Positions 33,952 to 40,375 of a stretch of 64,000 bases of DNA are shown here, in pieces (position 1 is the stretch's first letter; the number at the start of each line of letters is the position of its first letter). The position numbers were made by a program, and so were the translations under genes. The notes below the pieces were generated by a model that saw only the letters and a program-made list of their open reading frames with translations, did no database searches and was not told the origin of the DNA. Location of the stretch: positions 1-64,000 of the forward strand of contig JABABA010000012.1 in assembly GCA_014238415.1 (NCBI GenBank). The letters are read 5' to 3'. Source of the stretch: Planctomycetota bacterium (GTDB taxonomy: Bacteria; Planctomycetota; UBA1135; GCA-002686595).

Positions 33952-35760
33952 ATGTCTGATACTCACGCATCCAACGCTCGCCCGGGAATGGGCGAAGCCG
34001 GAACCACGCGCACGAGCCACGAGCACCACGAGCTTGGCTTCATCCGCAAGTACATTTTCTCTACCGACCACAAAGTCATCGGCATCCAGTTCATGTTGCT
34101 GGGGCTTGTGTTCTTCGTGCTCGGCGGCTTGTTCGCCATGGCGATCCGGTACCAGTTGGCCTGGCCCTGGGAGAGCATGCCTGTAATTGGTGACTTGTTG
34201 TTCCCCAATACTGGACAGGCGATCACTCCAGAGTTCTACACCATGCTGTTCACCATGCACGGCACGATCATGATCTTCTTCGTGATCATCCCGCTGTTGA
34301 CCGGCGCCTTTGGCAATTTCCTGATCCCCTTGATGATCGGTGCACCTGACATGGCCTTCCCCAAGCTGAACATGTTCGGCTTCTGGGCCATGATTCCGGC
34401 TGTCTTCTGTGTGCTGATGTCCTTTTACCAGCCTGGTGGTGGACCTGCTGCGGGTTGGACCGCCTACCCAACCCTCTCGACCATCGAGAGCGCCGCTCCC
34501 GGGTCGGTATCGGCCCAAACCTGGTGGCTTCTGGCGCTGACTTGGGTTGGTGTGAGTTCAATGATGGGTGCGGTCAACTATGTGACCACCATCGTCAAGA
34601 TGCGGGCGCCAGGCATGACCATGTTCCGCATGCCATTGTCTATCTGGGCCCTGTGGATCGCAGCCTTGTTGCAGCTTTTCGCTTTGCCGGTCCTGACCGC
34701 TGCAAGTTTGATGCAGATCTCAGACCGAGTTTTGCAGTCTGGCTTCTTCACACCGACGAATCTGGTAATCAATCAGCTCAACCCCGAGGGGGCTGGTGCC
34801 GCCGCAGGTGGCCAGCCTCTTCTTTGGCAGCACCTTTTCTGGTTCTACAGTCACCCTGCTGTCTACATCATGGTTGTTCCGGCAATGGGCCTTGCGTCTG
34901 ACATCCTCAGCGTACATGCCCGCAAGCCGATCTTTGGCTACAAGCCCATGGTCTACTCCCTGAGTTCGATTGCGGGCCTGGGGTTCATTGTCTGGGGACA
35001 CCACATGTTTGCCTCGGGCATGAACCCTGCACTAGGCATGACTTTCATGGTGGCTACCATGATGATCGCCCTGCCGAGCGCGGTCAAAGTCTTCAATTGG
35101 CTGGGCACCCTTTGGGGCGCGCGAATTCAGTTGACCACCCCGATGCTCTTCATCTTGGGGTTCATTGCCATGTTCATCATTGGTGGTCTGTCGGGTATCT
35201 GGATGGCTGCTACTCCAGTTGACATCTATATTCACGACACGTACATCATCGTGGCCCACTTCCACTATGTGGTTTTCGCTGGTTCAGTGTTTGCAATCTT
35301 CGCAGCGATCTATCACTGGTTCCCCAAGATGTTCGGACGGGTGATGAACGAAACCCTGGGCAAGATCCACTTTGTGGGCAGTTTCATCTTCACTAACGGA
35401 GTCTTCTACATGATGCACCAGCTTGGTATGGCCGGTTTGATGCGTCGTACGGCAGACCCCTACGATTATGAAACCTACGCCCATCTGCAGCCCCTGAATG
35501 TGTTCATCACGATAAGTGCATTCTGTCTCTTTGTCTGGCAGATCTTCTTTGTGTGGAACTTCTTCCATTCCATGTTCTGGGGTAAACGTGTCAGTCGAAA
35601 TCCTTGGAACGCCTGCAGCTTGGAGTGGGAAGCCCCCTCGCCTCCGGGGCACGGCAATTTTGATCGCGCCCTGCGTGTTCACCGTGGTCCCTACGAATAC
35701 GCCAGCCCGGATGTGGAAGAGGACTTCTTTGTTCAGACCCGGGAAGTTGAGAGCAAGTAA
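33952..35760 (+). CDS. coxA: Cytochrome c oxidase subunit I, A2-type heme-copper oxidase
   Basis: 602 residues, about 12 membrane helices. Heme and CuB ligands are visible: MLFTMHGTIMIFF (heme a His), FWFYSHPAVYIMVVPAMG (CuB His plus cross-linked Tyr), IVWGHHMFASGM (two CuB His) and HDTYIIVAHFHYVV (heme a3 and heme a His). The D-channel Glu of A1 enzymes (HPEVY) is absent; the YSHPAVY form defines type A2, in which Tyr-Ser substitute. It reduces O2 to water at the membrane and pumps protons. A 35-residue hydrophilic tail follows the last helix. Confidence 0.97.
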   Translation: MSDTHASNARPGMGEAGTTRTSHEHHELGFIRKYIFSTDHKVIGIQFMLLGLVFFVLGGLFAMAIRYQLAWPWESMPVIGDLLFPNTGQAITPEFYTMLFTMHGTIMIFFVIIPLLTGAFGNFLIPLMIGAPDMAFPKLNMFGFWAMIPAVFCVLMSFYQPGGGPAAGWTAYPTLSTIESAAPGSVSAQTWWLLALTWVGVSSMMGAVNYVTTIVKMRAPGMTMFRMPLSIWALWIAALLQLFALPVLTAASLMQISDRVLQSGFFTPTNLVINQLNPEGAGAAAGGQPLLWQHLFWFYSHPAVYIMVVPAMGLASDILSVHARKPIFGYKPMVYSLSSIAGLGFIVWGHHMFASGMNPALGMTFMVATMMIALPSAVKVFNWLGTLWGARIQLTTPMLFILGFIAMFIIGGLSGIWMAATPVDIYIHDTYIIVAHFHYVVFAGSVFAIFAAIYHWFPKMFGRVMNETLGKIHFVGSFIFTNGVFYMMHQLGMAGLMRRTADPYDYETYAHLQPLNVFITISAFCLFVWQIFFVWNFFHSMFWGKRVSRNPWNACSLEWEAPSPPGHGNFDRALRVHRGPYEYASPDVEEDFFVQTREVESK

Positions 35761-38473: not shown

Positions 38474-38929
38474 ATGTCTGAACACCCCCCGCAATTCAGT
38501 GTCAAGAAACTGTGGATCATCTTGCTTGCTCTCACCGCAGCAGAGGTGGTCTACGGAGAAATTGGCAACCGCAACTTCTATGAACAAAAGCTACTGCTCT
38601 GGGGCGGCTTGCTGATCTTTGCCTACTTCAAGGGCTATTACATCTATCAGTACTTCATGCACATGAAGTACGAGGGAGCAATCGTCAAGGGCAATGTCTG
38701 GTTCACGGTCCCACTGGTGATCTACTTCATGATCATGCTCTGGCCAGACACGGCCGCCAACGACAAACTGAACTACGAGATCGCCCATCAGCTTGACCCC
38801 ATGACCGGGGACATAGCGACGATCATCGAAGGCTCACGCAATCTCGTGAACGAGGAATTCCGTTATCTCTATGATGATTATGCTGCGACTCATCCGGGTG
38901 CTGAGATCCACGGAGAGGGCGGGAACTAG
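38474..38929 (+). CDS. Cytochrome c oxidase subunit IV-family protein
   Basis: 151 residues, with GGAGG nine bases before the ATG. Three membrane segments (LWIILLALTAAEVVYGEIG; KLLLWGGLLIFAYFKGYYIY; WFTVPLVIYFMIMLW), separated by FMHMKYEGAIVKGN, the typical prokaryotic subunit IV pattern (FMHL/MKYE). A C-terminal soluble tail of ~45 residues is longer than usual. Its last 59 bp overlap the predicted start of the SCO-DUF420 gene in another frame. Confidence 0.88.
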   Translation: MSEHPPQFSVKKLWIILLALTAAEVVYGEIGNRNFYEQKLLLWGGLLIFAYFKGYYIYQYFMHMKYEGAIVKGNVWFTVPLVIYFMIMLWPDTAANDKLNYEIAHQLDPMTGDIATIIEGSRNLVNEEFRYLYDDYAATHPGAEIHGEGGN

Positions 38930-40049
38930 TAGCTCTCGAGCGGCGAGCCTGGCCCTTCTGTGCTGCCTTGCCTTTTCCGTCGAGGGGGCACTTGCTTTGC
39001 CAGGTGCAGCTGTGGAGGAGGGGGGTCCCGTCCAGGGGGCTGCGTCTCCGCCCGTGGATTCCGAGGTACGCTTCACTATTGTGCCGGAGTTCTCCTTCAT
39101 AGAGCGCTCCGGTCAGGTGCTGTCTTTAGACGACTTGTTGGGTGCACCTTGGATCGCTATCCCTTTCTATGCTCGCTGTATGGGGCCCTGTCCCTCCATG
39201 ACAGGGGATTTGCGGGCCCAGGTCTATCCTCTCTTGGCGGGTTCCGATGTGCGCATGGTTTCGTTTTCGGTGGACCCCGACTACGACACGCCTGAGGTCC
39301 TGGGCGAATGGGCCGCCCGCTTCAAGGTCGAGGACGAGCGTTGGGTGTTCCTGACCGGTGATTCCTCAGAGATGGAGAACTTTGTGCGCCAAGGCCTCAA
39401 AGTTGCTCTTGCCCGTAGTGGAGATCCTGCCCTGGAGCCGGGGCTGGCGATCACCCATGCCACGCGCTTGCCGGTGATTGATCCTGAGGGACGGATCGCC
39501 GGCTGGTATGAGTGCGCAGGCGATGATCTTTCCCGGGAAGAGTTGGTCGGGAACATGGTTCTGATGGCGGAGCGCGCTCTGGCCCTGGGTGAATCGTTCG
39601 GGGCCAAGAGCTCTGCTTCGATCTTGCCTTTGGTCAATGCCAGCCTGAATGGCATCGCGGGGATCTTGCTGGTGGCGGGATTGATTGCGATCAAGTCCGG
39701 ACGCAAGCAGCGCCACGCGGCCCTCATGAAGTCGGCCTTCCTGGTCAGCGCCGCATTTCTCGTCAGCTATGTCTACTACCACACCATGGTCCTGCCGTTA
39801 CAGGGAGGCCCCACGGAGTTCCATGGCAAAGGGGCCGCCAAGGTGGCTTATTTGGTGTTGTTGGGGACCCACGTGCTGCTGGCGGCTGTCAATCTGCCAA
39901 TGGTTCTTCGCACCATCCTGCTGGCCCAGCGCGAGGATTGGGTCCGTCACCGTTGGTGGGCGCGTCTGACCTACCCTATCTGGCTCTATGTGAGCGTGAC
40001 CGGTGTGCTGGTTTATTTTGTTCTGTATCATTGGAACCCGACACCATGA
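38871..40049 (+). CDS. SCO1/SenC copper chaperone fused to a DUF420 membrane domain
   Basis: 392 residues. Signal/anchor near 25-45, then a thioredoxin-fold SCO domain with its copper site YARCMGPCPSM (CxxxC) and the distal His in AITHATRLPVIDPEG. From about residue 245 on, four helices match DUF420: LPLVNASLNGIAGILLVAGL, LMKSAFLVSAAFLVSYVYYH, VAYLVLLGTHVLLAAVNLPM, YPIWLYVSVTGVLVYFVLYH. SCO proteins insert copper into CuA; DUF420 is found with oxidase operons. The 5' end is uncertain because it overlaps coxD by 59 bp and has no clear ribosome site; a GTG at 38898 is an alternative. Confidence 0.9.
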   Translation: MMIMLRLIRVLRSTERAGTSSSRAASLALLCCLAFSVEGALALPGAAVEEGGPVQGAASPPVDSEVRFTIVPEFSFIERSGQVLSLDDLLGAPWIAIPFYARCMGPCPSMTGDLRAQVYPLLAGSDVRMVSFSVDPDYDTPEVLGEWAARFKVEDERWVFLTGDSSEMENFVRQGLKVALARSGDPALEPGLAITHATRLPVIDPEGRIAGWYECAGDDLSREELVGNMVLMAERALALGESFGAKSSASILPLVNASLNGIAGILLVAGLIAIKSGRKQRHAALMKSAFLVSAAFLVSYVYYHTMVLPLQGGPTEFHGKGAAKVAYLVLLGTHVLLAAVNLPMVLRTILLAQREDWVRHRWWARLTYPIWLYVSVTGVLVYFVLYHWNPTP

Positions 40050-40375
40050 GAACCCTGCAATACACCCTGATTCCTGTGACTCTGCTGCTGGCCTTGGCGC
40101 CGGTGGGCTTCACTTGAGACTCTTGTAAAGAGGCATTGGCCAGTGAGGGCGGGTCCCTCAGCGCAGGATTTACCTACAGCATCTACTTCATGCTGGGTGT
40201 GGTGATGATTCTGATTCCTGCTCTCTACGCGGGACTCTTGTGGAATACCTATCGGGGCCAGCGTGCGCGCAAGAAAGAGGGCAAGGAATTCACTCCTTCA
40301 AGCGGTGCCTTGCGTTGGGTGGATGAGGAACCGCTGGAATCAAGCGATTCCAGCGGCAGTGATTCCAAAGAGTGA
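40046..40375 (+). CDS. Putative UxxC selenoprotein, small cox-operon membrane protein (in-frame TGA at 40115-40117)
   Basis: 109 codons from ATG 40046, which overlaps the SCO-DUF420 stop (ATGA), the same coupling used by ctaA/ctaB/coxC. Residues 1-23 are a clean signal peptide (MRTLQYTLIPVTLLLALAPV...). Codon 24 is TGA; the frame then runs Asp-Ser-Cys-Lys-Glu-Ala-Leu, a membrane helix (FTYSIYFMLGVVMILIPALY) and a basic/acidic tail to TGA 40375. Small proteins at this operon position in related bacteria, as I recall them, begin their mature part with Cys-Pro-x-Cys-Lys-Glu, so TGA replaces the first Cys and gives Sec-x-x-Cys. A SECIS-like hairpin follows. Without recoding only a 79-residue TTG-started remnant would be made, lacking the signal peptide. 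The probable role is thiol/copper redox chemistry in oxidase assembly. Confidence 0.8.
40144..40160 (+). promoter_or_regulatory. SECIS-like hairpin downstream of the TGA in the cox selenoprotein candidate
   Basis: TGAGGG (40144-40149) pairs perfectly with CCCTCA (40155-40160) around the loop CGGGT. The loop starts 33 nt after the TGA and has G at its second position, both within the bacterial SECIS rules (loop with a G among its first two bases, 16-37 nt from UGA). The loop matches the one in the AhpD-like gene at 62600. Confidence 0.65.

What the first reader, a model, noticed from the sequence alone, without database searches (positions are those of the whole stretch)
40046..40375. Probable new selenoprotein family ending the cytochrome oxidase operon (Sec-x-x-Cys)
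An ATG overlapping the SCO-DUF420 stop opens a signal peptide, then an in-frame TGA, Asp-Ser-Cys-Lys-Glu-Ala-Leu, a membrane helix and a normal stop. TGA sits where I recall relatives in other bacteria having the first Cys of a CxxCKE motif, giving UxxC. A SECIS-like hairpin lies 26-43 nt after the TGA. I do not know of this cox-linked family being described as a selenoprotein. It would add a selenol to a copper/oxidase assembly pathway.
Basis: partly seen in the sequence, partly recalled or inferred. Interest (0 to 1): 0.94.

Follow-up and report, generated by a model that had tools for sequence, protein, structure and literature searches.

The report
Selenium protein in oxidase assembly operon
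At the end of a cytochrome oxidase operon in Planctomycetota bacteria sits the gene of a small, predicted membrane protein whose in-frame UGA codon is kept across many genera, mostly with an RNA hairpin behind it, so it likely encodes a selenium-containing protein that would help build the respiratory oxidase, a role in which our literature searches showed no selenoprotein.

Summary
Window 40046-40375 reads signal peptide, TGA, DSCKE, membrane helix, stop (also TGA), opening on the stop of the SCO-DUF420 gene. The genome carries selA, selB, tRNA-Sec and selD. A profile finds the family in 49 of 81 genomes of the same family and 106 of 392 sampled from the phylum. Of 135 hits read, 68 have TGA at the first motif position (UxxC), 13 at the second (CxxU), 51 are CxxC, 3 do not fit. 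tRNA-Sec accompanies 71 of 81 Sec forms and 24 of 51 Cys forms. A covarying GGU-loop hairpin sits at a set distance behind the TGA (GGT at +21 to +26 in 57 of 68 and 11 of 12; Cys forms 4 of 51) and shifts with it; the window's own genus has a more distant, less certain version. Cox genes flank 113 of 135 hits; DUF420 lies directly upstream of 84. No Pfam, NCBIfam or PDB family matches, and a 2026 catalogue of 119 selenoprotein families lists nothing like it. Function is inferred: a membrane-tethered Sec/Cys pair serving copper loading of the oxidase, more likely as reductant than copper carrier. Selenium itself is untested.

The parts
40046..40375 (+). gene of the predicted selenoprotein, 109 residues plus stop (TGA at both codon 24 and the end)
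40046..40114 (+). predicted signal peptide / first hydrophobic helix, residues 1-23; the motif follows at once
   Evidence: hydropathy; helix 2-21 in the model; in Cys forms Ala at -1 in 40 of 50 and at -3 in 31 of 50, as for signal peptidase I (rule recalled)
40115..40117 (+). TGA, predicted selenocysteine 24 of the Sec-x-x-Cys motif
   Evidence: in 7 of 7 genomes of the genus
40124..40126 (+). TGT, Cys27 of the motif
40144..40160 (+). candidate SECIS hairpin TGAGGG-CGGGT-CCCTCA, loop 40150-40154; competes with a longer fold
   Evidence: fits limits quoted in PMC13188914 section 5
40169..40243 (+). membrane helix, about residues 42-66, followed by a basic stretch
38871..40049 (+). SCO1/SenC (CMGPC motif present) fused to DUF420 (CtaM-like)
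   Evidence: Pfam; motif
38474..38929 (+). oxidase subunit IV
   Evidence: PF03626
37736..38458 (+). oxidase subunit III (ORF as listed; true start may lie downstream)
   Evidence: PF00510
36933..37832 (+). UbiA family, presumably heme O synthase
   Evidence: PF01040
35770..36936 (+). multi-helix protein that I read as heme A synthase; no Pfam match at 1e-5
   Evidence: negative
33952..35760 (+). oxidase subunit I
   Evidence: PF00115
33069..33926 (+). oxidase subunit II with a CuA-type CAELCGWGHYKM stretch
   Evidence: PF00116 and PF02790; motif

Best explanation
The gene at 40046-40375 has an in-frame TGA, kept across many genera, that is predicted to encode selenocysteine in a Sec-x-x-Cys motif of a small, predicted membrane protein, which would likely serve copper loading of the neighbouring cytochrome oxidase by keeping the copper-receiving thiols of SCO and subunit II reduced. 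Shown by sequence: the frame, the conserved TGA, Cys relatives at both motif positions, the selenocysteine genes, the family's hairpin that follows the TGA, the cox-operon linkage. Predicted: a signal peptide puts the motif at or next to the mature N-terminus on the outer face of the membrane, at the start of a short helix, tethered by one membrane helix with a basic inner tail. Inferred: UGA is read as Sec by SelB on the hairpin; the Sec-Cys pair passes electrons to oxidised SCO (CMGPC) or to the CuA cysteines so that Cu(I) can bind, in genomes where the usual CuB factor Cox11 was not found. Who re-reduces it is unknown.
For: Own genome: selB 344.5 bits, over cut-off; tRNA-Sec 73.7 bits; selD 331.9 bits, itself with one in-frame TGA; selA 449.6 bits. 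Family: of 135 hits, 68 UxxC in 11 taxonomic families, 13 CxxU in 6, 51 CxxC in 23, 3 not classifiable (G245 placed by hand). tRNA-Sec over 60 bits with 71 of 81 Sec-form and 24 of 51 Cys-form hits (Fisher p 8e-7, kinship not corrected); of the 10 Sec-form genomes without it, 7 have selB over cut-off. Hairpin: GGT at +21 to +26 in 57 of 68 UxxC and 11 of 12 CxxU genes, counted from the TGA, against 4 of 51 Cys genes from either Cys codon. A hairpin of 5 or more pairs with GGT in or beside its loop at +13 to +44: 58 of 68, 8 of 12, 1 of 51. Covariation on 59 genes: 5 of 6 pairs with two-sided change (5 of 500 shuffles reach that), covariation score reached by 0 of 500; slid versions score 0.13 at most against 0.31. 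Context: cox genes in 113 of 135 loci, DUF420 directly upstream on the same strand in 84. Cox11 in 0 of 44 and Caa3_CtaG in 6 of 44 genomes with the gene. Reductant role by analogy: TlpA reduces ScoI and COX II (PMC6696091, passages).
Against: No experiment, and no isolate identified: the 81 Sec-form hits are in assemblies of 20 contigs or more. The redox role is inference; a Cu(I)-binding role is not excluded. Only 5 of 13 CxxU genes lie near cox genes in the DNA held; two of the others looked at have different neighbours. The window's own hairpin is more distant than the family's usual one, folds no better than shuffles alone, loses to a longer fold in longer stretches and shows no significant covariation in the genus. 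4 further UxxC genes lack GGT in place. 10 of 81 Sec-form genomes showed no tRNA-Sec, 3 of these no selB over cut-off either. 32 of 81 family genomes lack the gene at E 0.001. Codon-position bias in the genus is weak before the TGA (154 against 126 and 100). Model confidence at the motif is low (pLDDT 63 for residues 21-30).
Confidence: 0.62

Rival explanations
1. Same selenoprotein, but the Sec-Cys pair is a Cu(I) ligand: a membrane-tethered copper carrier that hands Cu(I) to SCO, to CuA or to CuB, standing in for the missing Cox11.
For: Cox11 in 0 of 44 and Caa3_CtaG in 6 of 44 genomes searched. Sec occurs at either motif position (68 and 13 hits), as one would expect of two equal ligands. 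DUF420/CtaM beside it is proposed to export copper to Sco, and planctomycete Sco-DUF420 fusions are noted (PMC13344008, passages). The 2026 catalogue lists Sec in metal-binding families such as a mercuric transport protein and a cation-transporting ATPase.
Against: The 2026 review judges that most uncharacterised selenoproteins likely serve redox functions (PMC13188914). No conserved His is seen in the alignment, and the one common Met lies in the membrane helix.
Confidence: 0.27
2. Selenoprotein that is a small accessory subunit of the oxidase, or a general periplasmic redox protein that only shares the operon.
For: Small single-helix protein; 8 of 13 CxxU and 10 of 51 CxxC genes have no cox gene in the DNA held.
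Against: 113 of 135 hits near cox genes, 84 directly behind DUF420.
Confidence: 0.08
3. Not a selenoprotein: the TGA is a real stop, a sequencing error or a pseudogene, and the product starts downstream (as databases now have it) or is nothing.
For: The protein database holds the window's product only as a 79-residue piece starting after the TGA (P0002). Three hits have TGAs that do not fit the motif.
Against: TGA in 7 of 7 genomes of the genus and at a motif position in 81 of 135 hits; behind the TGA, differences in the genus favour codon position 3 (514 against 252 and 235); Cys relatives, family hairpin and tRNA-Sec agree.
Confidence: 0.03

Closest known systems
Bacterial selenoproteins with UxxC/CxxU redox motifs (catalogue of 119 families, PMC13188914 Table 1, read in full)
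   Same: in-frame UGA, Cys homologues, bSECIS-type hairpin, UxxC or CxxU pair
   Different: no listed family is named as a cox-linked single-helix membrane protein; no Pfam or NCBIfam match at E 0.01 for 26 Cys members; Sec at either of the two positions within one family
TlpA / ScoI redox pair for CuA (PMC6696091, passages)
   Same: proposed role: membrane-tethered dithiol near Sco and subunit II
   Different: TlpA is thioredoxin-like; this is a short helical protein with no thioredoxin match
Cox11_CtaG
   Same: membrane-anchored cysteine-pair protein of oxidase assembly
   Different: no PF04442 match, CxxC rather than CXC (CXC as quoted in PMC9145763, passages), anchor C-terminal to the motif
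FixS/CcoS small oxidase maturation proteins
   Same: size, one membrane helix, oxidase link
   Different: PF03597 at E 0.14, 12.3 bits, below cut-off 23.1 and covering the membrane helix only

Membership tests
Bacterial selenoprotein | in-frame TGA at a conserved place in many genomes | tested here: met
   81 of 135 hits, 7 of 7 in the genus
Bacterial selenoprotein | Cys at the same place in relatives | tested here: met
   51 of 135 hits CxxC
Bacterial selenoprotein | selA, selB, selC, selD in the genome | tested here: met
   tRNA-Sec with 71 of 81 Sec forms
Bacterial selenoprotein | SECIS hairpin behind the TGA, family level | tested here: met
   GGT at +21 to +26 in 57 of 68 and 11 of 12 against 4 of 51 Cys forms; covariation
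Bacterial selenoprotein | SECIS hairpin in the window itself (loop 3-9 nt, stem 4-16 bp, G in first two loop positions, 16-37 nt from UGA, MFE -7.5 or lower) | tested here: inconclusive
   limits met by loop 5, stem 6, G second, 32 nt, -8.8; but z +0.12, another fold wins in longer stretches, covariation not significant
Bacterial selenoprotein | selenium in the protein | not testable with these tools
   needs 75Se or mass spectrometry
Thioredoxin-fold UxxC oxidoreductase | thioredoxin-like fold | tested here: not met
   no Pfam match; all-helix model, mean pLDDT 79.5
Cox11_CtaG | PF04442 domain with CXC | tested here: not met
   no match; motif is UxxC, CxxU or CxxC
FixS/CcoS | PF03597 over cut-off | tested here: not met
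   12.3 against 23.1 bits
Known NCBIfam selenoprotein family | match to an NCBIfam model over its cut-off | tested here: not met
   (one sub-threshold match, a transporter model, E 0.023, for L031)

The most novel reading that the evidence does not exclude
Planctomycetota build their cytochrome oxidase with a dedicated selenium-dependent step: a Sec/Cys pair at the mature N-terminus of a tiny membrane protein works with the SCO-CtaM fusion in place of Cox11, and within this one family selenocysteine has taken either of the two cysteine positions, the SECIS hairpin moving along with it.
Probability: 0.4. Interest if true: 0.9.

Novelty: new variant of a known kind. Interest (0 to 1): 0.82.

Why it matters
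It would tie selenium to the assembly of a respiratory cytochrome oxidase, and give a lead on how copper is placed in the oxidases of Planctomycetota, where Cox11 was not found in 44 genomes. The family is also a natural experiment on Sec against Cys: both positions, both letters, and a hairpin that follows the codon. The database searched holds the window's protein cut off behind the active site, so ordinary annotation hides the feature.

Tried and rejected
Reassigned TGA (another genetic code): rejected, TGA ends 6 of the 8 neighbouring genes checked and none has an internal stop. Sequencing error: rejected, same TGA in 7 genomes of the genus, six of them matched by records of different isolates. 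Chance hairpin: not excluded for the window alone, rejected for the family. Gene tree to count Sec/Cys switches: unresolved, 75 columns for 126 rows, 17 of 123 inner branches well supported; 11 changes is the fewest on that tree, and one origin of each form is not ruled out; the independent-pairs test had 1 usable pair. Plasmid search with the protein: no match. Rfam on the window at gathering cut-offs: no match. PDB sequence search with the Cys profile: best E 0.18. No fold search of the model was run; a single long helix would match much by chance. Literature searches on selenoproteins with cytochrome c oxidase, Sco1, heme-copper oxidase or Planctomycetota: nothing on this family in the listings (one returned no paper).

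Rows left out: of 144 distinct family and phylum matches 135 were read; left out were G075 (E 4e-4, partial) and 8 others not used (5 of genus g111, 2 of g90, a second match in G177). The 5 + 2 rows list no stop inside; the G177 row lists a TAA. CxxU hairpin counts use 12 of 13, since G245 was placed by hand after the script. The motif classes were set by a search for [Cys or TGA]-x-x-[Cys or TGA], so they cannot show other residues; 3 rows did not fit. tRNA-Sec presence was typed by hand with a limit of 60 bits. Protein-feature counts use the 65, 11 and 50 rows for which a start codon could be set.

Full report
WHAT IS THERE. Upstream lie subunit II, subunit I, a multi-helix protein that I read as heme A synthase (no Pfam match at 1e-5), a UbiA-family protein, subunit III, subunit IV and SCO fused to DUF420. 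SCO has CMGPC and subunit II has CAELCGWGHYKM. Downstream is a methylated-DNA methyltransferase. None of the eight neighbouring genes has an internal stop and six of them end in TGA, so the code is standard.

MACHINERY. The genome (an 88.9% complete draft) has selB on contig 20 and, on contig 17, tRNA-Sec, selD with its own in-frame TGA and selA.

FAMILY. A search of 61 genomes (own and 60 relatives) with the read-through protein found relatives with the TGA at the same place (translations). Six loci with titles are five Planctomycetota and one uncultured bacterium. A profile of 22 members then hit 49 of 81 genomes of the family and 106 of 392 genomes sampled from the phylum; 13 matches are shared, 144 are distinct. 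I read 135 of these. The motif is UxxC in 68, CxxU in 13 (one, G245, placed by hand), CxxC in 51, and 3 do not fit (G293, G373, G367). UxxC occurs in 11 taxonomic families, CxxU in 6, CxxC in 23, and no family has both Sec forms. Both motif cysteines are thus replaced by TGA, in different lineages. The gene tree is too short to count the switches.

COUPLING TO THE SELENOCYSTEINE TRAIT. Reported tRNA-Sec scores fall in two groups, 65 bits or more and 55 or less; I took over 60 as present. It is present with 71 of 81 Sec-form and 24 of 51 Cys-form hits (Fisher p 8e-7; kinship not corrected). The ten Sec-form genomes without it are drafts, 62 to 92% complete; seven have selB over its cut-off, three do not. 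All 22 genomes of 97% completeness or more that were searched and lack tRNA-Sec carry the Cys form.

HAIRPIN. From the TGA, most UxxC genes read like CTGCAAGGAGGC-GGTC-GCCTCC: GGT begins at +21 to +26 in 57 of 68, and in 11 of 12 CxxU genes counted from their own TGA, nine bases further on in the gene. In Cys genes it is 4 of 51 from the first and 4 of 51 from the second Cys codon. A hairpin of five or more pairs with GGT in or beside its loop at +13 to +44: 58 of 68, 8 of 12, 1 of 51. On 59 distinct UxxC genes outside the window's genus 90.4% of cells pair, five of six pairs show two-sided change (5 of 500 shuffles reach that), and 0 of 500 shuffles reach the covariation score; related sequences can exceed shuffles, but the slid controls stay at 0.13 or less against 0.31. 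The folding z-score averages -0.81, -0.92 and +0.10 for UxxC, CxxU and CxxC. A side effect: the residue at +7 is Val in 57 of 65 UxxC proteins but 8 of 50 Cys proteins, presumably because GTC carries the loop. The window's genus is an exception: its 7 genomes have a hairpin with GGGT in or at the loop at +36 to +40 instead. It meets the published limits, and selD of the same genome has a GGTT hairpin with GGT at +36. Against it: covariation in the genus is not significant (190 of 500 shuffles), alone it folds like shuffles, and in two longer stretches a different, longer hairpin with loop AGUGAG is the lowest-energy fold. Four further UxxC genes lack GGT in place.

PROTEIN. Cys forms have Ala at -1 in 40 of 50 and at -3 in 31 of 50, which looks like a signal peptidase I site just before the motif (recalled rule). 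The model has helices 2-21, 25-33 and 38-77 with mean pLDDT 79.5, the motif at the start of the second, where confidence is low (63 for residues 21-30). So the mature protein would be a Sec/Cys pair outside the membrane on a single anchor. No Pfam or NCBIfam family over cut-off for the window's protein, and none at E 0.01 for 26 Cys members; no PDB relative. Where a source names database relatives, it calls them hypothetical protein, except one 'heme/copper-type cytochrome/quinol oxidase subunit 2' (P0014) and one 'uncharacterized membrane protein' (P0049).

CONTEXT. Cox genes lie in 113 of 135 loci and DUF420 directly upstream in 84; by form, any cox gene in 65 of 68 UxxC, 41 of 51 CxxC, 5 of 13 CxxU, 2 of 3 unclassified. 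Many loci reach only 1.5 kb either side and the search used the window's proteins, so these are lower bounds. Three loci without cox genes (L155, L163, L179) have other neighbours. Cox11 is in 0 of 44 and Caa3_CtaG in 6 of 44 genomes searched, all of which have the gene (44 of 142 genomes with a match).

HOW IT MOST LIKELY WORKS. DUF420 is CtaM, required for aa3- and caa3-type oxidases in Bacillota (PMC9145763, passages), and proposed to export copper to Sco, with planctomycete Sco-DUF420 fusions cited as support (PMC13344008, passages). In B. japonicum TlpA reduces ScoI and subunit II (PMC6696091, passages). I propose that the Sec-Cys pair is that reductant here. The rival, that it binds and passes Cu(I), is close behind: two interchangeable Sec positions and the missing Cox11 would fit it. 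Neither is tested.

LITERATURE. Table 1 of the 2026 review (PMC13188914) was read in full (section 5 also): 119 families, none named as a cox-linked small membrane protein. Passages of four further papers and the listings of searches showed none either. Several catalogue entries are hypothetical proteins that I know by name only; no NCBIfam model matched our proteins over its cut-off. Supplements and figures were not seen, and most subscription papers are not held, so 'not in print' holds for these searches only.

VERDICT. That this is a selenoprotein family I put at about 0.96; that it serves oxidase biogenesis at about 0.85; that its job is reduction rather than copper carrying at about 0.65.

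Noticed in passing
P0002; window 40136-40372: The protein database holds the window's product only as a 79-residue piece starting behind the TGA, so the active site is lost from annotation.
   Followed up: yes
L053 (G000 contig 17, 18001-18948): selD of the same genome has an in-frame TGA and a GGTT hairpin with GGT at +36; tRNA-Sec and selA lie on the same contig.
   Followed up: partly
window 38871-40049: SCO and DUF420 (CtaM) are one fused protein; matches to both parts recur upstream of the small gene in many loci.
   Followed up: partly
L155, L163, L179: Some CxxU and CxxC genes stand outside cox operons (neighbours include a nucleoside symporter, diaminopimelate epimerase, a two-component regulator), so part of the family may have another task.
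   Followed up: partly
L147 (G293), L165 (G373): Two hits near cox genes have TGA codons in places that fit neither motif class (two adjacent TGAs in one, Cys next to TGA in the other); unexplained.
   Followed up: no
44 genomes: No Cox11 in any of 44 Planctomycetota genomes searched and Caa3_CtaG in only 6: how CuB is loaded there is open.
   Followed up: partly
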